A DNA stretch of 64,000 bases from Candidatus Zhuqueibacterota bacterium (GCA_029262005.1 JAJDAG010000089.1:1-64000), one strand, 5' to 3'. Counted from the stretch's first letter, positions 1 through 17,166 are shown. The notes: generated by a model not told the origin, from the sequence alone. Program-made: numbers and translations.

Positions 1-323
1 AGGATAGATTCTGGTTAGACTATAAGTGATGGTATTTTCTGAAAAAAGTGTAGTATAGTCATTTTCATTCACAGAAGCCTGCATCTTCTCCAACTCATCC
101 GCATATTGCGTGGGAATCCAGCAAGACAGATAAGCCTGACCATTGCTGTTGGTGGTGCCGTATTCCCAGCAGTCATAATAATCCGGGTCGAACGGATCCC
201 CATACTGCGTGGTGACCCAGAGTTTAACATTGATACCGGCCAGAGGCGCACCGTTGTGGTCGTAAACAAAGAACTCGGCATGGTAGCCGTAAGTGACGAC
301 GGGTGGCCCGGTCAAACCACCGT
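1..323 (-). pseudogene. N-terminal fragment of Vps62-like secreted protein, 5' end lost
   Basis: The reverse strand is open from 323 to the window edge and encodes a near copy of the N-terminal region of the intact protein at 4462-5970 (shared TYGYHAEFFVYDHNGAPL, then WVTTQYGDPFDPD and WIPTQYADELEKMQAS). Homology begins at about 294, where the intact copy has GGGG after its signal peptide. Upstream there is no ATG and no signal peptide; the frame meets a TAA at 337-339. A MITE-like element (324-475) abuts the break. The rest of the gene lies beyond the left edge, so the state of its 3' end is unknown. I read it as a truncated paralogue; a GTG start at 328-330 inside the element is possible but would give a protein without an export signal. 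Confidence 0.75.
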
Positions 324-475
324 GTGCCACGTGCTTTTAGGCCGTGGCGTTCAATGCATCAGTCAAATGACCGGGTTTGTCATAGTGTTTCAACTTTTTT
401 CGAGGGTTGTGGTATTTTCTGACACGATACTTGTTTGAATGCCTGCGTTAGGCACGGCCTAAAGGCACGTGGCAC
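324..475. mobile_element. MITE-like element, 152 bp with 23-bp terminal inverted repeats
   Basis: Positions 324-346 and 453-475 are inverted copies that match at 22 of 23 bases (core GTGCCACGTGC and TTAGGCCGTG). The 106 bases between them hold no credible ORF. The left end lies exactly where homology to the Vps62-like coding sequence is lost. No target-site duplication is obvious. It could also be a two-unit REP (BIME-like) element, since the arms contain a short palindrome. Confidence 0.6.
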
Positions 476-666
476 CCACTTAATGTTATTGTGTGTGTCA
501 TGGGCACCCGGCGGGCGAGCGCATTAAAGGCACTGGCTAAAGCCAAGTGCCACCCAACTCTTAAATTCTCCTGTCCAGGGCACCCGGCGCCAACTACTAC
601 ACCCAAGTGCGTGAATAAGAATTACGATTAGAATTGTAGCCTTAGAAATTTTCATAAAATTGACAA
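476..666. repeat. Repeat-dense intergenic DNA with REP-like palindrome
   Basis: Two features stand out. A 12-bp direct repeat GGGCACCCGGCG occurs at 502-513 and 578-589. An imperfect palindrome at 529-551 pairs GGCACTGGCT with AGCCAAGTGCC around one or two bases. The motif shares the GTGCC core with the neighbouring MITE-like arms, so the whole stretch may have been built by the same family of small elements. No coding sequence is visible. Confidence 0.5.
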
Positions 667-1059
667 TCACCTCAATGATTCACCAACACTCCCTATACCA
701 ATCACAATATAGAAGAAAAGGGCAAGTGATATTGCGACGGCTGTTAGCGACACAATAGTTTTTTTTTGGTCGTACCGCTCTACTTTAATGGACACAATAT
801 CATCAAGAGCAATTTTTATCTCTTCGTAAGGGCCCGGTCGAGTATCATAACGCGGTGTCAGCCCGCATAGATGCTCCTCATCGAAGCGAGGTTTTTTGAC
901 CTTTATCTCTTTGCCGGAAATCAACTTAACATAGAGTAATCGCTCTTGTTGTAATTTTTCCGGCTCCATCGGAGCCAGGATTCTGTGTGAACAAGCAAAA
1001 GTGGAAACATTAAAACAAACCAAAAGGAAAAATATCGATCGGTGACGGCAATACCACAT
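667..1059 (-). CDS. Small lipoprotein with C-terminal membrane segment (paralogue of 4047-4439)
   Basis: Function unknown. The ATG at 1059 overlaps the TGA of the upstream gene (TGATG), so it is probably translationally coupled; a TTG one codon earlier is less likely. The N-terminus is a lipoprotein signal ending in a TFAC lipobox. The middle holds ILAPMEPEKLQQERLL, a VKLISGKEIKV strand and RPGPYEEIKIALDDI, followed by one hydrophobic helix near the C-terminus. The paralogue at 4047-4439 shares all of these. Both follow Vps62-like genes on the same strand, which suggests a functional link with that family. Confidence 0.75.
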   Translation of the reverse strand: MWYCRHRSIFFLLVCFNVSTFACSHRILAPMEPEKLQQERLLYVKLISGKEIKVKKPRFDEEHLCGLTPRYDTRPGPYEEIKIALDDIVSIKVERYDQKKTIVSLTAVAISLALFFYIVIGIGSVGESLR

Positions 1060-1553
1060 CAATATGCTTCCAATCTTAGATAGTTTTTCTGCTTATCTTT
1101 CTTTGGTTCTTTTTTTCCTAAAAAATAGCCGAGTGTCACACCACTTATCAACCCAACACCCGCTCCAATGAGAGTACCTTTCGTAAATATTTCTGGCGGT
1201 TCTCCCGGCATATGGGGTGAATGATTTATGGAGTGCCCGATCCAAGCACCAGCGAATACGCCTACAAAACCAAAAACAACCATAGGCACAGGATTTAGCT
1301 TTGTTTCTTTTTCAGAAATAGTCTGGGGAGCTGGCATCATCATGGCGAGAGGCCGCGGTCTCCTGGTGTTAGTCGCCACACAATCTTTATCCTTACCAAT
1401 TATTCTTGGAAGCAAATATTGCAAGAAATCAATATCTTTATGCATTGAGCCTTTTCGCTGTGCAGTGACTTGCGCCTCTGTCACCTGATTTGCGCCAAGT
1501 ATTATGGCGCATGTAATTAAGAATATGTAGGTTGTTTTCATTCTAATACCCAT
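1059..1553 (-). CDS. Glycine-zipper membrane protein, unknown function
   Basis: A 164-residue protein (160 if it starts at the second ATG, 1541). The N-terminus is a hydrophobic signal (IFLITCAIILGANQVTEA) with a likely signal peptidase cut after TEA. The C-terminal half has two Gly-rich hydrophobic segments, VVFGFVGVFAGAWIGHSI and GTLIGAGVGLISGVTLGYFL, which resemble the glycine-zipper hairpins of outer-membrane-associated proteins. A basic tail follows. Neither start has a clear ribosome binding site. It lies between the barrel-like gene and the coupled lipoprotein and is probably co-transcribed with both. I do not recognise the family. Confidence 0.65.
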   Translation of the reverse strand: MGIRMKTTYIFLITCAIILGANQVTEAQVTAQRKGSMHKDIDFLQYLLPRIIGKDKDCVATNTRRPRPLAMMMPAPQTISEKETKLNPVPMVVFGFVGVFAGAWIGHSINHSPHMPGEPPEIFTKGTLIGAGVGLISGVTLGYFLGKKEPKKDKQKNYLRLEAY

Positions 1554-1577
1554 TGCCGTGGATTATAATGAAATAAT

Positions 1578-2417
1578 TTATTTCGCGATATTAAAAACTA
1601 ATGCAAATCCCTTTTTATCATACCTGCCGTAAAAGTCTGCCAGAAATCCTAAAATAAACAGTGTCCCACTTTTTCGGCGATAACTGAAATTGGCGCCAAG
1701 AGCAGTTTTGTATGATTTCGAATTAGGGAGTACTTGCTTATTATATTTTTTATTTTCACCATGGTAGCCTATAATAAAAAAGGATATCCTTGTATTTTGA
1801 GATGTATTCATGGAAGGCTCGAGCTTAAAGTGTATTTCATTTCCAGCTTGATTATATAGATTACCGAAATCTACTATCGAATGATTCATGCGTCTGCGAA
1901 AGCGATAACTTGCTGAATAGTCCAGTTTCACGAAACCTATGTTGTTTGAGAAAGATAAACCAATATCAAATTTATCGTCTTCAATCCAAACTGCACTGCC
2001 AATTTTACCAAACTCATAGCCAACGCGTAGCCAAAGAGGGAGTTGTGATGGAAGTTTCAAATTCACCCATAGCCATGGTGTGCCCCACGAACTGCCAAAA
2101 GAGTCGCGAGCCATGACCAAACTTCCTTTGAATGCTGTATTGATTGTTAAATTTTCTCTGCTGTAAAATCGATAGGTAAAGTAGGCATACCACTCGGAGT
2201 AACTAATACCTTCTGCATTGGCTTCGCCATTGGCGTTAAATTCATTTAATCCCTTAAAAATATAGCTGGTTACTTTCGCTTTTTCAAATGGATGAATTGT
2301 ATCATTGCCTTGATCACTATAAGTTAAAAAATCGAATGTAAAGGCTTGGGCGGATATTGATGACGGTAAAATAATTGAATACAAAAGTAAGATTAGCAAA
2401 TATTGGGTTTTTATCAT
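1578..2417 (-). CDS. Predicted outer-membrane beta-barrel protein
   Basis: A 279-residue protein starting with a clear signal peptide (ILPSSISAQA cleavage region). The mature part is rich in alternating aromatic and polar strands such as YSEWYAYFTYRFYSR, SLSFSNNIGFVKLDYSASYR and AALGANFSYRRKSGT, typical of a small beta-barrel, with no hydrophobic helices. The start ATG at 2417 has an AAGG upstream. Inferred location is the outer membrane. It is followed after 24 bases by the glycine-zipper gene, so these two and the lipoprotein at 667-1059 look like one transcription unit. No specific family recognised. Confidence 0.65.
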   Translation of the reverse strand: MIKTQYLLILLLYSIILPSSISAQAFTFDFLTYSDQGNDTIHPFEKAKVTSYIFKGLNEFNANGEANAEGISYSEWYAYFTYRFYSRENLTINTAFKGSLVMARDSFGSSWGTPWLWVNLKLPSQLPLWLRVGYEFGKIGSAVWIEDDKFDIGLSFSNNIGFVKLDYSASYRFRRRMNHSIVDFGNLYNQAGNEIHFKLEPSMNTSQNTRISFFIIGYHGENKKYNKQVLPNSKSYKTALGANFSYRRKSGTLFILGFLADFYGRYDKKGFALVFNIAK

Positions 2418-2446
2418 TCCCGTACCTTTTTCTTAAATTTAAAATC

Positions 2447-2491
2447 CCGATTCGGCGAAGTCAATTTTCGTCTCATCATCGCCGAATCAGG
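2447..2491 (-). terminator. Stem-loop, probable terminator of the Vps62-like fragment
   Basis: GATTCGGCGA and TCGCCGAATC form a 10-bp perfect stem (2449-2458 with 2479-2488). Read on the minus strand it is followed by a T/A-rich stretch. It separates the Vps62-like fragment from the barrel gene and may act as a weak terminator. Confidence 0.5.
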
Positions 2492-2531
2492 TTATTGATC
2501 GTTATCCAGTGAAGGGGAGAAACTTTTGTTA

Positions 2532-3205
2532 TTAGTAACCCTTCTCCTCCCACTCAACATTCTGGACAGGCCCAGCCGGTGCAAAATTACCTACATTATC
2601 AGGGACACCAAACCATTTTTCGGCAATATAAGTACCTACACCAAATGTCCACCCAGCTATTATTCCTCGGGCTGCTGTGAAGACTGTGTAGCCGGCGCTT
2701 GGTTCGGATAAAACATATCCCCAAAATGCGTTAAAGACCATCCAATTCAAATTATTGCCATTTGAATCAATGTAAGGCACGGTATTGTTCTGACCATTGT
2801 TTACATAGCCAAAGTCTGGGAGAATTATGATATTTGAATAATTATCAAAATCGATAATAAGACCTTGGCCATCAACAAACTCATCATCACCCAATGAATT
2901 GATATTATTATGTGTACCAGGGTTCGGATAGGAGCCATGAGTGCCATGGCCGCTCATTCCAAAAGAATCAACGTATCCTCCTACATATACCTTCGGATGT
3001 GTTTGGTTCACGAGCGTGATCTGCGTTGGGTCTTTCACCGATTTTTCATGATGGAAATAATAGACAACTTTTTGAATTTGTGCTTGGCTCGGAGACTGGC
3101 CATTCACAATTACATTAATATGCTCCCAATCACCTTCATGACGATTTGCGGATGCATTAAATGGGTAGTAAAACCAATACTGAATAACTACATCATTTTG
3201 CTCGA
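2532..3205 (-). pseudogene. C-terminal fragment of a Vps62-like secreted protein
   Basis: Homology to the C-terminal part of the 502-residue protein at 4462-5970 starts at about 3191 with IQYWFYYPFN and HEGDWEHINVIV, the core signature of Vps62/DUF946-like domains, and continues through YYFHHEKS, THPKVYVGGY, GSYPNPGTHNNI and GDDEFVDG. The GTG at 3107 would begin after the signature and is not a credible start. Upstream the frame runs into a palindromic REP-like repeat at 3206, and the N-terminal half and signal peptide are missing. The C-terminal tail differs from that of the intact copy, so this was a diverged paralogue before it was broken. Confidence 0.7.
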
Positions 3206-3360
3206 CCTGGGTTTCTAACCCAGGCCGGTCAATAATAATCGGGCTTCTGCCCCAACAAATCTGTTTGATAACATTATTTTTTTTGCATTGTCGGTTATCA
3301 GTTGGGGCAGAAGCCCTTTCTAATCGCGCCCCGGGAAGAATCCCAGGGCGAGCAACAGCC
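3206..3360. repeat. Cluster of REP-like palindromes
   Basis: Three elements lie in a row: a short hairpin CCTGGGTT-TCT-AACCCAGG (3206-3224); a perfect 16-bp inverted repeat, GGGCTTCTGCCCCAAC at 3241-3256 and its complement at 3301-3316, around a 44-base T-rich loop; and a 45-base unit at 3311-3355 (AAGCCCTTTCT ... CCCAGGGCGAGCA) that recurs at 3642-3686. They sit exactly at the 5' break of the Vps62-like fragment. The look is that of REP/RAYT-type repeats, but no Y1 transposase gene is in the window. Confidence 0.6.
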
Positions 3361-3527
3361 CCACATACTTCAAACCTTATTCCCTTATTTTGTTATAATG
3401 TCAAATGCGTCATACGGGTATTCATATTAAATAAGGTAATAAGGTTTTGACGTCAGGTTGCGATTCATGCTATTAAGCTGTAAAAGATTAAAATAAGGTT
3501 TTTAATAGCCTTGCTTTTAAATTTAGA
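3361..3527. other. Intergenic spacer between repeat clusters
   Basis: AT-rich sequence between the two repeat clusters. Short ORFs cross it, but none has a ribosome binding site or recognisable homology. Nothing else is visible. Confidence 0.4.
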
Positions 3528-3687
3528 TCGCCCTGGGGTTTCATTAAACCAGGTTTTTTGCATGCATCAATTCCGAAGAAGTGTCTCCTTGAATATTTAT
3601 ACATCATATTCTTCATCGTTTAACCATGGCCGGGCGCTGCTAAGCCCTTTCTCATTGCACCCTGGGAGGAATCCCCAGGGCGAGCAG
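3528..3687. repeat. Second copy of the REP-like repeat cluster, at the IS982 break
   Basis: A hairpin-forming stretch, CCCTGGGGTT then AAACCAGG (3531-3548), is followed by the second copy of the 45-base unit at 3642-3686. That copy is close to the one at 3311-3355, with a handful of substitutions and one indel. It ends where IS982 transposase homology begins, so the repeat replaced or interrupted the transposase N-terminus. Confidence 0.6.
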
Positions 3688-4046
3688 GAAATTTGGGGTA
3701 AACTCTTTGGCGACAAAGGATATATTTCCAAAAATCTCTTTGAGATGCTCTTTGTTGATGGCATTCATCTGATCACTAAAATCAGAAATAATATGAAAAA
3801 TTCGCTCATGGATATAAATGACAAAATATTGTTGCGTAAACGAGCACTCATCGAAACCATTAATGATGAACTAAAAAATATCTGCCAAATCGAACATTCA
3901 AGGCATCGGTCACAGGCTAATTTTCTTTGCAACACCATCGCTGGATTGGTAGCATACTCATTTCTGCCTAAAAAACCAGCTATTAAATGTCAATTTGTCA
4001 ACTCAAAGCAATTAGCTTTCTGTTAAGCGCTTACGTCGAACTCACG
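3688..4046 (+). pseudogene. IS982-family transposase, C-terminal remnant
   Basis: From about 3688 the plus strand encodes the C-terminal third of an IS982-type DDE transposase: IWGKLFGDKGYISKNLFE, HLITKIRNNMKN, LLRKRALIETIN, ICQIEHSRHRS and a hydrophobic AGLVAYSFLPKKPAI end, with the stop at 4024-4026. The N-terminal DD-containing part is absent. The remaining ORF upstream (from 3511) is only translated repeat sequence. The CGTCGAACTCACG after the stop looks like an IS982 terminal sequence, so the right end is near 4046. The element is inactive and not autonomous. Confidence 0.8.
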
Positions 4047-4439
4047 TTAGTTAAACCCGCTTCCCCAGCTCGAAGCAAAGGCTTGAAATAATCCCAATGT
4101 AGTTACGATGATTGCAACCACTAATAAAGTCTTGGGCGGAGAAAATCTTTCGACTCTTATGGAGTCAATCTCATTGAGAGGAACCTTTATTTCTTTGTAT
4201 GGGCCGGGGCGACTATCATATAAAGGAATTTTACCTAATAAAAAAGTCTTAGTAAACTTCGGTTCCCTTACATTTATTTCCTTTCCAGAGACTAATTTAA
4301 CATGGAGTAATCGCTCTTTTTGTAGTGATTCAGGATTCATCGGAGCAAGGATTCTTTTTGAACAAGCAAACAAGAAAAAATAAAAACAGACCAATAGAAA
4401 GAATGCAAAGTATCGAGAGTGTGTTCTATAGATTATCAT
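4047..4439 (-). CDS. Small lipoprotein (paralogue of 667-1059)
   Basis: A 130-residue protein with a hydrophobic leader ending in a LFAC lipobox followed by SKRILAPMNPESLQKERLL, then VKLVSGKEINV, RPGPYKEIKVPLNEIDSI and a C-terminal hydrophobic helix. It matches the lipoprotein at 667-1059 block for block. It starts 22 bases after the intact Vps62-like gene, so the two are probably co-transcribed. Its stop codon lies at the edge of the IS982 remnant. The repeated order Vps62-like gene then lipoprotein suggests that the lipoprotein acts with the secreted protein at the cell surface; the role itself is unknown. Confidence 0.75.
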   Translation of the reverse strand: MIIYRTHSRYFAFFLLVCFYFFLFACSKRILAPMNPESLQKERLLHVKLVSGKEINVREPKFTKTFLLGKIPLYDSRPGPYKEIKVPLNEIDSIRVERFSPPKTLLVVAIIVTTLGLFQAFASSWGSGFN

Positions 4440-4461
4440 CTTATCAACCTATACGTTGTTT

Positions 4462-5970
4462 TTATGGTCGAGCAGAATAGTAACTAAATGAATTATTGTC
4501 CTCTAGTGTATTCCAACCCGAATTATAAGGTGGGCCTGGGGGGCCGTCATTTCCTATATCACCACCCGTTGTTGGCCAAATATACAGGAACGGCTGGAGC
4601 CATTCACCGGGGCTATCAGCCTCCCACAGGCCCCAGGGTATTGCAGCTTTGAACCATCTCATGTGTAAATCATTGCTATAGTCTATGTCATCAATTTCAG
4701 GCAATATGACAATCCCCCTTTTGTCGTTTGGATCGCCGTCGATGAACTCACTATAATTGATATATGGGCCGTTTCCCCATACATATTCGTCAAACCCTAA
4801 AGGCCCTACATTGCTCCAAGTTCCCGGTTCTGGATAGCTGCCTCCAGATGTTTCTCCTGGGACACAAGTTGCAGGCAAGTCAATACCCGCGCACGATCCC
4901 CCAACATATATTACCGGGTGTGTATTATTGTCAAGTTCCATATCACTAGGAATTCGCAGTTGTACCAAATGATGGAAATAAAAATTGACTTTAACTATCT
5001 CTGCATCCGCGGGATCTTGAGAGTCTACAACCACATTAATGTGTTCCCAATCCCCTTCATGATTATTGTACCCATCATTATAAGGATAGAAAATCCAGTA
5101 TTGAATAACGTAGCGAGAACCATAAACGAATAAATGAGCATAAATTGTATGACTGAAATAGTTGTTGTTGCGCTCAGTTTGATAAAGTGCCGACCAACCA
5201 GAGGGGTCTGGGTTTCCAGAAAAACCAAAATGAAAGCGTAGATAATAATTCCCGTAAGCCGCTCCAGGTGGTTGACCTTCATAATTGTAGGCATTCCATG
5301 TTAATGTTTCCCATGAAGAGCTTGGATTGTTAATCCAAGGATGCCAATTTGAAACTGGAGGAACGAAAAGCCCTTCGTCGTCAACAGAAAAATCATCAAC
5401 TTTTTGGCTGTTTGTATTAATGGCCGCAAACCACAACCCACTGGTTACATCCGCGTTGATATATTCAACAGGCTCCGGTGCAATCCAATCAGTTGGTGAA
5501 TGTAGTTTAAGGCTCGGACAAAATTTTTCTGCTAAAGGCAATTCCCACGGGTCATAAATCAAGTTATGATCCGTGTCATACATTAAGTCATATCTTGGAT
5601 AAATCCTTGTCTGTGCATAAGAAACCGTGTTTTCTGAGTATAAAATGGTATAATCAGAGTTGAGCATACTGGCCTGCATCTTCTCCAGTTCATCCGCATA
5701 CTGCGTGGGAATCCAGCAAGATAGATAAGCCTGGCCGTTGCTGTTGGTGGTGCCGTATTCCCAGCAGTCGTAAAAATCCGGGTCGAACGGATCCCCATAC
5801 TGCGTGGTGACCCAGAGTTTAACATTGATACCGGCCAAAGGCGCACCGTTGTGGTCGTAAACAAAGAACTCGGCATGGTAGCCGTAGGTACCGCCACCGC
5901 CGGCAGCAAATAGTGAAGGGGCCGAAATTAGAAATAAAATCAGACTGAATACCCATAAAATCCGTTTCAT
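4462..5970 (-). CDS. Secreted protein with Vps62/DUF946-like domain
   Basis: A 502-residue exported protein, the only intact member of a local three-copy family. A typical signal peptide (FLISAPSLFAA) is followed by GGGG. Residues about 25-110 look like an immunoglobulin-like or carboxypeptidase-regulatory fold (AEFFVYDHNGAPLAGINVKL). The C-terminal half carries YVIQYWIFYPYND and NNHEGDWEHINVVV, which resemble the QYW...HEGDWE signature of the Vps62 (DUF946) family, plus THPVIYVGGS. The start is supported by AAGGAG seven bases upstream of the ATG. The biochemical role of the family is not established. It is followed by its lipoprotein partner and preceded by the T9SS-like cargo gene. Confidence 0.75.
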   Translation of the reverse strand: MKRILWVFSLILFLISAPSLFAAGGGGTYGYHAEFFVYDHNGAPLAGINVKLWVTTQYGDPFDPDFYDCWEYGTTNSNGQAYLSCWIPTQYADELEKMQASMLNSDYTILYSENTVSYAQTRIYPRYDLMYDTDHNLIYDPWELPLAEKFCPSLKLHSPTDWIAPEPVEYINADVTSGLWFAAINTNSQKVDDFSVDDEGLFVPPVSNWHPWINNPSSSWETLTWNAYNYEGQPPGAAYGNYYLRFHFGFSGNPDPSGWSALYQTERNNNYFSHTIYAHLFVYGSRYVIQYWIFYPYNDGYNNHEGDWEHINVVVDSQDPADAEIVKVNFYFHHLVQLRIPSDMELDNNTHPVIYVGGSCAGIDLPATCVPGETSGGSYPEPGTWSNVGPLGFDEYVWGNGPYINYSEFIDGDPNDKRGIVILPEIDDIDYSNDLHMRWFKAAIPWGLWEADSPGEWLQPFLYIWPTTGGDIGNDGPPGPPYNSGWNTLEDNNSFSYYSARP

Positions 5971-6058: not shown

Positions 6059-7345
6059 TTATTTCAATAGTAAAAGTTTACGCCGGGCCTTAAAATCCCC
6101 AGCCTGAATCTGATAAACATAAAGCCCGCTGGAAAGAAGTTGCCCCTGGTCGTTACGGCCATTCCATACGACTTTATGACTGCCGGTGCTGTACGCCCGA
6201 TCAACAAGGTTGCGCACCAACTGACCAACTGTGTTGTAAATGTGCAGCTTAACCTCCGCAGCCTGCGGAAGATCAAATTGAATTTGTGTTTCCGGATTAA
6301 AGGGATTGGGAAAGTTCTGATAAAGTTGAAAGGTCTCCGGTAATTTAGTCATCGCAGCCATTCCGACCCTTCCCTCAGAAGACAGCTTCTTTATGGTGAT
6401 ACCGCCCAATTCTTCGGTGAAGAATTCCTGCGCATCGTTCAAGTTGTCTGCAAAATCACTGAGCTGGGGTGATTGCGCGATGGTTACTGGTAAATGCACT
6501 GTTTCTCCCGGCTGCAAATTGATGGGGCCGTAACTTAAGAGAAAACGAAAATCGCTCGCCTGTTCCGGGTCAGTTCCATTCACATTTCCTTGCAAATATG
6601 AATACATGTCGGCCTCATTTTGCGGGTCGTCTTCAGCCGTCCACCAGGAAACTATTGGTTTGGCCACGCCTAAAATCATCGCACCTAAAAGCGGATTCTC
6701 TGTTCCTGTGATACTGCTGTCAAAAATAAACGGCGCTTTACCTTTGAGTGCAAATCCCACTTTGTCGTTTGCAGGTGAATTGCGGTTGTCTTTGTCCGGT
6801 GCATCCACATCTGACCATAAACCGACGTAAACGCCCTTAAGCGCCGGGAAAGCTGAATCCAGCGTAATTGCATAATCCACCAAAGCAAATCCTGTGTTTT
6901 TAAAGCCATATATAGTTTGCGCTACCTGCAACCCTAACGGGATATGGCCGGTAAACGCGGTTAAATCGGAAAATGAGGTGGTGGCAATTTCCTCAACCTG
7001 AGAAAAGCCGGTGTTGGTTGTGGCAGCAAAGGACTTCACCTCAGCCGTCCACTCTGAACGAGATACAACAGAATTGCCCGCACCGGCAGACACAAGCGAT
7101 TTTCCTTTTGAGTTAACTGCACCAACCCAAAGAGCGAATTCCGCATAGTAGTTCACATAATTGGTAAACGCAGTATCTTTATTGGCGTGGCGTGCAGTGC
7201 CAAAAACACCAAATGCACGATTAGGCAGCTCCAAGCCACCCACTTTCGCCTTACTGTCCGCCAACACTTCCTGCCCGATTACAAATATACAGGACAACAT
7301 GAACAGGATTACCAACATCATTTGGGCCATCTGTTTCACATTCAT
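6059..7345 (-). CDS. Secreted protein with T9SS-like C-terminal sorting domain
   Basis: A 428-residue protein with a signal peptide at residues 1-30 and GGAGGT upstream of the ATG. Residues about 35-345 form a beta-rich region of unknown function, with GIYVGLWSDVD-type segments seen in proteins of this kind. The last 80 residues carry the type IX/FlgD-like sorting domain: FQLYQNFPNPFNPETQI, a KLHIYNTVGQLVR strand, VVWNGRNDQGQLLSSGLYVY, and a basic KARRKLLLLK end. Such C-terminal domains direct cargo across the outer membrane and attach it to the surface. It ends 88 bases before the Vps62-like gene starts on the same strand. Confidence 0.85.
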   Translation of the reverse strand: MNVKQMAQMMLVILFMLSCIFVIGQEVLADSKAKVGGLELPNRAFGVFGTARHANKDTAFTNYVNYYAEFALWVGAVNSKGKSLVSAGAGNSVVSRSEWTAEVKSFAATTNTGFSQVEEIATTSFSDLTAFTGHIPLGLQVAQTIYGFKNTGFALVDYAITLDSAFPALKGVYVGLWSDVDAPDKDNRNSPANDKVGFALKGKAPFIFDSSITGTENPLLGAMILGVAKPIVSWWTAEDDPQNEADMYSYLQGNVNGTDPEQASDFRFLLSYGPINLQPGETVHLPVTIAQSPQLSDFADNLNDAQEFFTEELGGITIKKLSSEGRVGMAAMTKLPETFQLYQNFPNPFNPETQIQFDLPQAAEVKLHIYNTVGQLVRNLVDRAYSTGSHKVVWNGRNDQGQLLSSGLYVYQIQAGDFKARRKLLLLK

Positions 7346-14949: not shown

Positions 14950-17166
14950 TTACGCCTTTATGACTTGAATTTTACCTTTGCCTGACTTTGAAATACACCC
15001 GATTCGTGCCGCCTGTGCAACGCCATTTTGCTGTAATTTCAGCACTGCGTCTACTGCTTCTTTCTCGGGCAAAGCGATAAGCAGGCCACCGGATGTTTGC
15101 GCGTCACAAAGCAATGTACGCATTGTATGCGAAACGTCACTTGCCCAGTCAACCATATCCGCTATGTAGTCCAGGTTGTTTAAAGTGCCGCCAGGAATAA
15201 TTTTAGCTGCCACCAATTCTTTGGCTTGAGTTAATACAGGTACTTTTTCAGCGATAATTTCCGCCTCAACGCCACTGCCAATGGTCATCTCTTTTAGATG
15301 CCCGAGCAAGCCAAAACCAGTAATATCTGTGCAGGCGTGCACGGAAAAATCTGCCAGCACTTCTGCTGCCGCGCGGTTGAGTGTTGCCATAAGCGCGGTT
15401 GCCGTTACTGTGGTTTCAGGTTTCGCCAGACCTCGTTTAATCGCAGTTGAGATGATCCCCAAGCCGATTGGTTTTGTTAAAATGAGTGCGTCGCCGGGTT
15501 TAGCGCCGTTATTTGTCCATATTTTGTCAGGATGAACAATGCCGGTTACGGCAAGGCCGAACTTGGGCTCCGTATCTTCGATAGTATGCCCGCCGATAAT
15601 GCTCAGGCCGGCCTCTTTTGCTTTGTCCTGGGCACCACGCAGGATGTCCCCGAGCACTTCCATCGGCAGCCTGTTCGAGGGAAAACCAACAATGTTGAGC
15701 GCAAACAAAGGTTTGCCGCCCATGGCATAAATGTCGCTCAGAGCGTTGGTTGCTGCTATTGCGCCAAATTGGTAAGGATCATCATGGATGGGAGTGAAGA
15801 AATCCACAGTTTGCACGATAGCTGTGTCCTGATTTATTTTGTAAACTGCGGCATCATCTGCAGTATTGAGGCCAACAAGCACGCGCGCGTCGTCGGGTAC
15901 CGGCATATCAGCCAGAATGCGTTCGAGAGCCTGGGGGCGTAATTTACAGGCGCAACCCAGGCCATGGGTAAAGTGCGTGAGTTTTATTTCACCAACCTTG
16001 TTGCCGGCCGGAGCAAGTTCGTGTTCTGCATTGGGCTGAAGCCGGTTCACCGCAGCGGTGATTATAGAAACGGCTTTTTCAACGTCATTTTCTGTTAGAA
16101 ATCTTCCTGTGGAAAGGCGAATGGTACCCATGGCGTATTCCACCGGCACCCCCATGGCCAGTAAAGTCGGGGAAATGTCGATAGAGTCTGAATGACATGC
16201 CGCACCGGCTGAAGCAGCCAGTCCATCAAGCTCATCGAGCAAAGTGTTTGCTTCAATACCAGGAAAGCTGATGCTGAGTGTGTTTGGCAATCTGTTCTTC
16301 GGGTGGCCATTTAATTTGACCCGGTGACATTTGGCTAAAATGCCCTGATAGAGCAAATCGCGCGTATGGCGCATGTGTGCGCTATTTTGCTTGAAGTCTT
16401 TTTGTGCGAGTTCGCAGGCCTTGCCCAGTCCAACAATTTCCAATACATTTTCGGTGCCGGCGCGCAAGTTTGATTCGTGATCGGCGCCGTGTATTTGTTT
16501 TTCCAGCGTGACACCCTGCCGAACATAGAGTGCGCCAACGCCTTTGGGTGCATAAATTTTGTGGCCTGCTACTGTCAGTAGATCTGCGCCAAGTTCATTG
16601 ACCTGTACTGGGATTTTGCCGACACTTTGCGCAGCATCAGTGTGCAAAGGTATTCCATGTTTATGGGCGATCTCTGCAATTTCCGCAATGGGTTGAATGG
16701 TGCCGACTTCGTTGTTCGCGTGCATAAGCGAAACTAAAATAGTCTGTGGCGAGATGGCTTTTTCAAGTGCATTTACATTGATCACGCCGTTTTCATCTAC
16801 CTGTAAATAAGTTACTTGAAAGCCGTTCTGTTCAAGGAATTTGCACACTTCGGTAACAGCCGGGTGTTCGATTTGCGAAGTGATGATGTGGGTGCCCTTG
16901 CTGCGATTTGCCAGCGCAAAACCTTTGATGGCATAATTGTTAGATTCACTGCCGCCACTTGTGAAAATAATTTCTTCCGGCTCACACCCGAGCAAGTCAG
17001 CGACCTGTTGCCTGGCCAACTCAACAGCCTGCCTGGTTTCAAATCCGTACCAGTGGCTGCTGCTGGGGTTGCCAAAATGTTGTTCGAGAAAGGGCCGCAT
17101 GGCTTCGATGACCGGTGCGGCAAGTGGGGTTGTCGCGTTGTAGTCAAGGTAGATAGGGGGCTGCAT
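14950..17166 (-). CDS. Cysteine desulfurase - selenophosphate synthase fusion (NifS/IscS-SelD)
   Basis: A 738-residue two-enzyme fusion. Residues 1-375 are a class V PLP-dependent cysteine desulfurase: PLP lysine in AGHKIYAPKG (K203), active-site loop AGAACHS (C324) and RLSTGRFLTENDVEKAV. Residues about 393-738 are SelD: the catalytic loop GLGCACKL (Cys405, Lys408), then ADDAAVYKI, ALSDIYAMGGKP, GGHTIEDTEPKFGLA and DITGFGLLGHL. The desulfurase half can release selenium from selenocysteine and the SelD half makes selenophosphate with ATP, so the fusion would channel selenium. The catalytic position is Cys, not Sec. No selA, selB or ybbB is in the window, so the fate of the selenophosphate is unknown. 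The esterase gene lies 14 bases upstream. Confidence 0.93.
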   Translation of the reverse strand: MQPPIYLDYNATTPLAAPVIEAMRPFLEQHFGNPSSSHWYGFETRQAVELARQQVADLLGCEPEEIIFTSGGSESNNYAIKGFALANRSKGTHIITSQIEHPAVTEVCKFLEQNGFQVTYLQVDENGVINVNALEKAISPQTILVSLMHANNEVGTIQPIAEIAEIAHKHGIPLHTDAAQSVGKIPVQVNELGADLLTVAGHKIYAPKGVGALYVRQGVTLEKQIHGADHESNLRAGTENVLEIVGLGKACELAQKDFKQNSAHMRHTRDLLYQGILAKCHRVKLNGHPKNRLPNTLSISFPGIEANTLLDELDGLAASAGAACHSDSIDISPTLLAMGVPVEYAMGTIRLSTGRFLTENDVEKAVSIITAAVNRLQPNAEHELAPAGNKVGEIKLTHFTHGLGCACKLRPQALERILADMPVPDDARVLVGLNTADDAAVYKINQDTAIVQTVDFFTPIHDDPYQFGAIAATNALSDIYAMGGKPLFALNIVGFPSNRLPMEVLGDILRGAQDKAKEAGLSIIGGHTIEDTEPKFGLAVTGIVHPDKIWTNNGAKPGDALILTKPIGLGIISTAIKRGLAKPETTVTATALMATLNRAAAEVLADFSVHACTDITGFGLLGHLKEMTIGSGVEAEIIAEKVPVLTQAKELVAAKIIPGGTLNNLDYIADMVDWASDVSHTMRTLLCDAQTSGGLLIALPEKEAVDAVLKLQQNGVAQAARIGCISKSGKGKIQVIKA

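What the first reader, a model, noticed from the sequence alone, without database searches (positions are those of the whole stretch)
1..5970. Broken tandem array of Vps62-like secreted proteins paired with small lipoproteins
An intact Vps62/DUF946-like exported protein (4462-5970) is followed by a lipoprotein (4047-4439). The same lipoprotein type recurs at 667-1059, with a C-terminal Vps62-like fragment upstream of it (2532-3205) and an N-terminal fragment downstream (1-323). Between them lie a barrel-like protein and a glycine-zipper protein. The repeated gene order suggests a two-gene unit (secreted HEGDWE protein plus lipoprotein), possibly with accessory envelope proteins, that was amplified and then broken by mobile elements. 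The role of bacterial Vps62-like proteins is not established, so this is the best candidate here for an undescribed envelope-linked system.
Basis: partly seen in the sequence, partly recalled or inferred. Interest (0 to 1): 0.6.

Follow-up and report, generated by a model that had tools for sequence, protein, structure and literature searches.

The report
Shuffling NLP-fold surface protein gene unit
A bacterium from a little-known phylum carries a repeated three-gene unit: an exported protein whose variable end folds like a family of membrane-damaging toxins of plant pathogens, a partner with a secretion tag, and a small membrane-anchored protein that tends to change with that end; it looks like a swappable weapon-and-protection or surface-variation system, but its function has not been tested.

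Summary
(1) The unit has three genes, not two: FlgD-Ig/T9SS-tailed protein (7345-6059), Ig + Vps62/NLP-like protein (5970-4462), lipoprotein with C-terminal TM (4439-4047). (2) The "N-terminal fragment" at 1-330 is cut by the contig end, not by a mobile element. The first two genes are adjacent in every locus with a full N-module and enough upstream sequence (14/14, same strand, 5-89 bp), in KSB1-type, Calditrichaeota and Neomarinimicrobiota genomes; 0/52 differently built relatives show this. The C-terminal domain models well (pLDDT 86), and its only significant PDB matches are NLP (Nep1-like, NPP1) cytolysins; some relatives hit Pfam Vps62 and, weakly, NPP1. The conserved Ig module plus polymorphic C-domain plus type-matched lipoprotein, with orphan C-fragments downstream, resembles CDI toxin/immunity cassette arrays. 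One genome holds both halves of an apparent cassette swap. Best reading: a T9SS-linked, cassette-swapping NLP-fold effector with a cognate lipoprotein, probably self-protection. Fold, operon and modularity are computed; toxicity and immunity are inferred and untested. The barrel protein is not conserved. New variant of a known kind.

The parts
6059..7345 (-).
   Evidence: PF13860 44.2 bits (cut-off 27); TIGR04183 32.5 bits (cut-off 23); directly upstream of gene 2 in 14/14 loci
4462..5970 (-). Gene 2: 502-aa exported protein, signal peptide + Ig-like N-module (about aa 28-125) + Vps62/NLP-like C-domain (about aa 140-502)
   Evidence: (Ig module pLDDT 84-97)
5041..5061 (-). HEGDWEH motif (aa 304-310); D307 and E309 align with Mg2+ ligands Asp104 and Glu106 of NLPPya
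   Evidence: ligand identities from PMC6743777
4047..4439 (-). Gene 3: 130-aa lipoprotein (lipobox Cys26), about 75-aa soluble stretch, C-terminal TM-like segment
3206..4046 (.). Stretch with a DDE transposase remnant (3511-4026, +) and repeats dispersed in the genome
   Evidence: PF13612 117 bits; 49 partial matches in the genome
2532..3205 (-). Orphan C-terminal fragment of a second gene-2 protein (from about aa 286), without N-module
   Evidence: 47% identity over aa 286-411
1578..2417 (-). 279-aa exported, barrel-like protein; not conserved, doubtful member of the unit
   Evidence: one short hit in 81 other genomes of the phylum
1059..1553 (-). Glycine-zipper protein; a relative recurs after an orphan fragment in G017 C98
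   Evidence: PF13488 23.3 bits, below cut-off 25; phmmer 8e-9 to L046 4603-4986
667..1062 (-). Second lipoprotein, same architecture as gene 3 (start ATG 1059 or TTG 1062)
   Evidence: 51-52% identity to gene 3
331..666 (.). Repeat-rich spacer upstream of the third N-module
   Evidence: 14 partial matches in the genome
1..330 (-). Third gene-2 N-module without signal peptide; continues beyond the contig end
   Evidence: 95% DNA identity to gene 2 over 218 bp; contig starts at base 1; last 141 bases identical to the end of C150

Best explanation
This is a T9SS-linked surface effector locus that diversifies by cassette exchange. Gene 1 carries a T9SS-type sorting tail and probably escorts or displays gene 2. 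Gene 2 has a constant Ig-like N-module and a polymorphic C-terminal domain of the NLP/Vps62 fold with a conserved divalent-metal-type site. That domain most likely binds the membrane or envelope of another cell and damages it. Gene 3 and its counterparts, a lipid-anchored protein with one C-terminal TM, most likely protect the producer from its own effector. New C-domain plus lipoprotein cassettes recombine onto the constant N-module; displaced C-terminal ends stay behind as orphans next to their small genes. Computed here: gene order, fold, modular divergence, co-variation, orphan cassettes. Inferred: secretion through gene 1, membrane damage, immunity.
For: Gene 1 directly upstream of gene 2 in 14/14 loci with an N-module and upstream sequence, 0/52 long relatives (L042 shows only the gene-1 tail); 9 of 11 strong gene-1 homologues found by an independent search sit next to gene 2. 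T9SS tail on gene 1, SprA in the genome, gene-2 domain fused to such a tail in other phyla. Fold: 15 of 15 PDB matches at E<=1e-3 are NLPs, next E 0.73; profile search of PDB hits only NLPs. Modularity: C55/C98 N-modules 86% and C-domains 27% identical; C98 holds the displaced C55-type C-terminus plus its downstream gene at 92% DNA identity. Lipoprotein type follows C-domain type: 11/15 within against 2/40 between types, p 0.0004; inside one genome 4/4 against 0/6.
Against: All C-domains share one fold, unlike classic polymorphic toxins. Related domains in Gemmatimonadota and Myxococcota stand in single 640-900-aa proteins without gene 1. The rank correlation of C-domain and lipoprotein similarity is only p 0.06; some lipoproteins are more alike than their C-domains (C198/C210: 86% against 54%). 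In C55, L061, L063, L097 and L132 the downstream gene is another small exported protein. TM-scores to NLPs are modest (0.34-0.41 by target). No activity tested.
Confidence: 0.45

Rival explanations
1. A variable surface lectin or adhesin: the NLP-fold domain binds glycans or lipid head groups, its diversity reflects changing partners or phage pressure, and the lipoprotein is an anchor or assembly factor rather than immunity.
For: Single fold kept across all copies; NLPs themselves bind sphingolipid head groups (PMC6743777); relatives fused to adhesion-type modules such as CarboxypepD_reg, beta-helix and FG-GAP repeats; lipoproteins can be more conserved than C-domains.
Against: Orphan C-terminal ends kept together with their small gene and type-matched lipoproteins are better explained by a cognate pair.
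Confidence: 0.3
2. An extracellular metal-dependent enzyme acting on envelope or polymer substrates, with diversification by substrate.
For: Nearly invariant H, E, D, W, E, H cluster (H304-H310), N298 and H333; relatives carry carbohydrate- and polymer-type modules.
Against: The only fold matches are non-enzymatic NLPs; no enzyme family matched in Pfam, NCBIfam or PDB.
Confidence: 0.12
3. A plain paralogous gene cluster, amplified and decayed by mobile elements, without organised exchange.
For: Transposase remnant and dispersed repeats between the pieces; the G027 copy has an in-frame TAG and the G055 copy is truncated.
Against: The gene 1-gene 2 order is kept across distant genomes, and N- and C-halves have sharply different divergence.
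Confidence: 0.1

Closest known systems
NLP / NPP1 (PF05630), Nep1-like cytolysins, e.g. NLPPya 3GNZ
   Same: Fold core (Foldseek E 4e-6, prob 1.00), DWE motif, two of the Mg2+ ligands in the profile alignment
   Different: Domain nearly twice the size, N-terminal Ig module, HEGDWE instead of the NLP heptapeptide, below the Pfam cut-off, encoded in a three-gene bacterial unit
Vps62 (PF06101), the HxGDWE part of the model
   Same: Relatives pulled in by the window protein score far above the cut-off (L056 78 bits, L050 43.5; cut-off 22.1)
   Different: Window protein itself has no hit; the beta-tripod part of the Pfam model (PMC7613979) is not involved
CDI (cdiA-CT/cdiI) loci with orphan modules (PMC3150448)
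   Same: Constant N-part, variable C-end, small downstream gene, orphan C-ends with their small gene, IS debris among orphans
   Different: No VENN-type CdiA, no two-partner secretion; one fold only; immunity not shown
TANFOR polymorphic toxins of Bacteroidetes, proposed T9SS substrates (PMC7073777)
   Same: T9SS link, toxin sometimes in the gene next to the delivery gene, downstream immunity gene
   Different: No TANFOR (TIGR02542) hit on gene 1 or gene 2; other phyla; different C-domain

Membership tests
Vps62 (PF06101) | Score above the Pfam gathering cut-off | tested here: not met
   0 families for the window protein; met by relatives L050 and L056
Vps62 (PF06101) | HxGDWE core shared with family members | tested here: met
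   aligned and nearly invariant in 60 relatives, 10 of which match PF06101
NLP / NPP1 (PF05630) | Score above the Pfam gathering cut-off (21 bits) | tested here: not met
   best relatives 20.4 and 18.4 bits; 7 of 60 relatives at E<=0.1
NLP / NPP1 (PF05630) | NLP fold | tested here: met
   15/15 significant PDB matches; partial, TM by target 0.34-0.41
NLP / NPP1 (PF05630) | Exact heptapeptide motif | tested here: not met
   HEGDWE; H, D, W and E at the same spacing
NLP / NPP1 (PF05630) | Cytolytic activity | not testable with these tools
   needs an assay
Polymorphic toxin system (CDI-like) | Constant N-part with variable C-domain | tested here: met
   86% against 27%; DNA break
Polymorphic toxin system (CDI-like) | Orphan C-ends with a downstream gene | tested here: met
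   G017 C98; window 2532-3205; L097 7959-8405
Polymorphic toxin system (CDI-like) | C-domains of unrelated folds | tested here: not met
   all are NLP/Vps62-like
Polymorphic toxin system (CDI-like) | Cognate immunity gene downstream | tested here: inconclusive
   type matching p 0.0004, rank correlation p 0.06; function untested
TANFOR polymorphic toxins | TANFOR domain TIGR02542 | tested here: not met
   no hit at E<=1 in NCBIfam for gene 1 or gene 2
T9SS cargo | C-terminal sorting domain, and a T9SS translocon in the genome | tested here: met
   gene 1: TIGR04183 32.5 bits, cut-off 23; SprA 782 bits. Gene 2 itself has no such tail

The most novel reading that the evidence does not exclude
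A polymorphic effector/immunity system of KSB1-type, Calditrichaeota and Neomarinimicrobiota bacteria whose exchangeable C-domain has the NLP cytolysin fold, displayed through a separate T9SS-tailed partner and neutralised by a lipid-anchored membrane protein; NLPs and bacterial Vps62-like proteins would then form one superfamily with roots in bacterial conflict.
Probability: 0.35. Interest if true: 0.8.

Novelty: new variant of a known kind. Interest (0 to 1): 0.6.

Why it matters
It gives bacterial Vps62-like proteins, whose role is open, a fold family, a conserved operon partner and a testable activity. No paper in the held library names both Vps62 and NPP1, so the link appears unstated there. 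It would also add a split, T9SS-linked arrangement to the known ways of swapping effector domains, in phyla with few experimental data.

Tried and rejected
First structure job with 10 sequences: good Ig module, C-domain not resolved; solved with 60 sequences. First lipoprotein/C-domain correlation used wrong signal-peptide cuts for two proteins and gave p 0.38; corrected (p 0.06), then tested by C-domain type labels. Considered and rejected: barrel protein as conserved accessory; TANFOR carrier (no TIGR02542 hit); known anti-phage defence proteins (no PADLOC hit); beta-tripod reading of Vps62 (our matches lie in the HxGDWE part of the model). PDB search with the lipoprotein profile gave only non-significant small-barrel hits.

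Full report
WHAT IS THERE. The window is bases 1-64000 of contig C193 of a 5.77-Mb, 205-contig genome; its nearest named relative in the search is a candidate division KSB1 MAG, OFTM177. Another gene 1 and gene-2 N-module lie at the end of contig C150, 91-92% identical. The ends of C150 and C193 share exactly 141 bases, as expected if an assembler stopped where two copies become identical (inference).

THE CONSERVED UNIT. In 82 genomes of the phylum, 12 have a gene-2 match. Gene maps show gene 1 directly upstream of gene 2, same strand, gaps 5-89 bp, in all 14 loci with an N-module and enough upstream sequence, including Calditrichaeota (L063) and Neomarinimicrobiota (L061, L097, L132) MAGs; in one of the 14 (L042) only the gene-1 tail is on the contig. 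None of 52 long relatives (600 aa or more) has it. Searched the other way, 9 of 11 strong gene-1 homologues are followed by gene 2, one ends at a contig end and one is alone. In Krumholzibacteriota, Binatia, Gemmatimonadetes and other MAGs the gene-2 domain is fused to a sorting tail in one protein, consistent with the same export route. SprA of T9SS is in this genome.

THE FOLD. Pfam has no match for the window protein. Relatives match Vps62 (L056 78 bits, L050 43.5 bits) and, weakly, NPP1 (10 and 7 of 60 members). A profile of 60 relatives finds in the PDB only the Pythium NLP, E 0.009-0.017, aligning HEGDWE with the NLP heptapeptide, D307 and E309 with Mg2+ ligands Asp104 and Glu106, and N298 with Asp93 (ligands from PMC6743777). 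The AlphaFold2 model (pLDDT 86.4, pTM 0.89) matches 15 PDB chains at E<=1e-3, all NLPs; the next match is E 0.73. TM-scores are modest; the modelled domain (377 aa) is nearly twice the size of an NLP (about 210 aa).

MODULARITY. In G017 (the RS_7_18 MAG) gene-2 copies C55 and C98 share the N-module (86% aa, 90% DNA over 495 bp), whereas their C-domains are 27% identical. C98 carries, 2.8 kb further on, the last ~113 codons of the C55-type C-domain plus its downstream gene at 92% DNA identity: two parts of one allele, separated by a different C-domain and two lipoproteins. Displaced orphan modules of this kind are described for CDI loci (PMC3150448). The window fragment 3205-2532 and L097 7959-8405 are similar orphans. 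In the window's genome, copy A and copies B and C agree at 92-98% within the N-module up to about aa 85 and fall to 62-75% after it, while B and C stay identical there.

THE LIPOPROTEINS. They share a lipobox Cys, a ~75-aa soluble stretch (longer in some) and, in all but one of the 16 examined, at least one C-terminal TM-like segment. Grouped by C-domain type, 11 of 15 within-type pairs are detectably similar against 2 of 40 between types (permutation p 0.0004; inside G017 4/4 against 0/6). Caveats: a rank correlation of the same matrices gives only p 0.06, within-type pairs partly reflect kinship of genomes, only loci with a lipoprotein were used, and in C55, L061, L063, L097 and L132 the downstream gene is a different small exported protein.

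INTERPRETATION. The constant N-module, exchangeable C-domain with type-matched small membrane gene, orphan cassettes, T9SS link and NLP fold together favour a secreted or surface effector with a cognate protection protein. Against it stand the single fold of all C-domains and the absence of this gene order around related domains in other phyla; a variable surface lectin is the main rival. No step of toxicity or immunity is shown. Published T9SS-linked polymorphic toxins (TANFOR, PMC7073777) share the logic but not the domains; a lipoprotein immunity protein (Imm65) was called exceptional in the survey PMC3482391.

Noticed in passing
window 14950-17166 (-): 738-aa ORF that reads like a NifS/IscS-type cysteine desulfurase fused to a selenophosphate synthase; judged by eye only.
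   Followed up: no
L041 7415-9001 (G027), L048 6409-7266 (G055): Gene-2 copies that look broken: an in-frame TAG in G027 and a truncated copy in G055, each still behind an intact gene 1.
   Followed up: partly
L053 6379-6771 (G081): A lone lipoprotein of the gene-3 type without gene 1 or gene 2 beside it, possibly an orphan protection gene.
   Followed up: partly
L052 6148-8658, L054 5965-8478 and many Gemmatimonadota/Myxococcota loci: About 840-aa proteins with the same domain in the N-terminal half and a C-terminal part that reads like an outer-membrane barrel; a separate, apparently single-copy branch.
   Followed up: partly
L133, L136, L137: The domain also occurs in Bathyarchaeota MAGs (565-583 aa proteins).
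   Followed up: no
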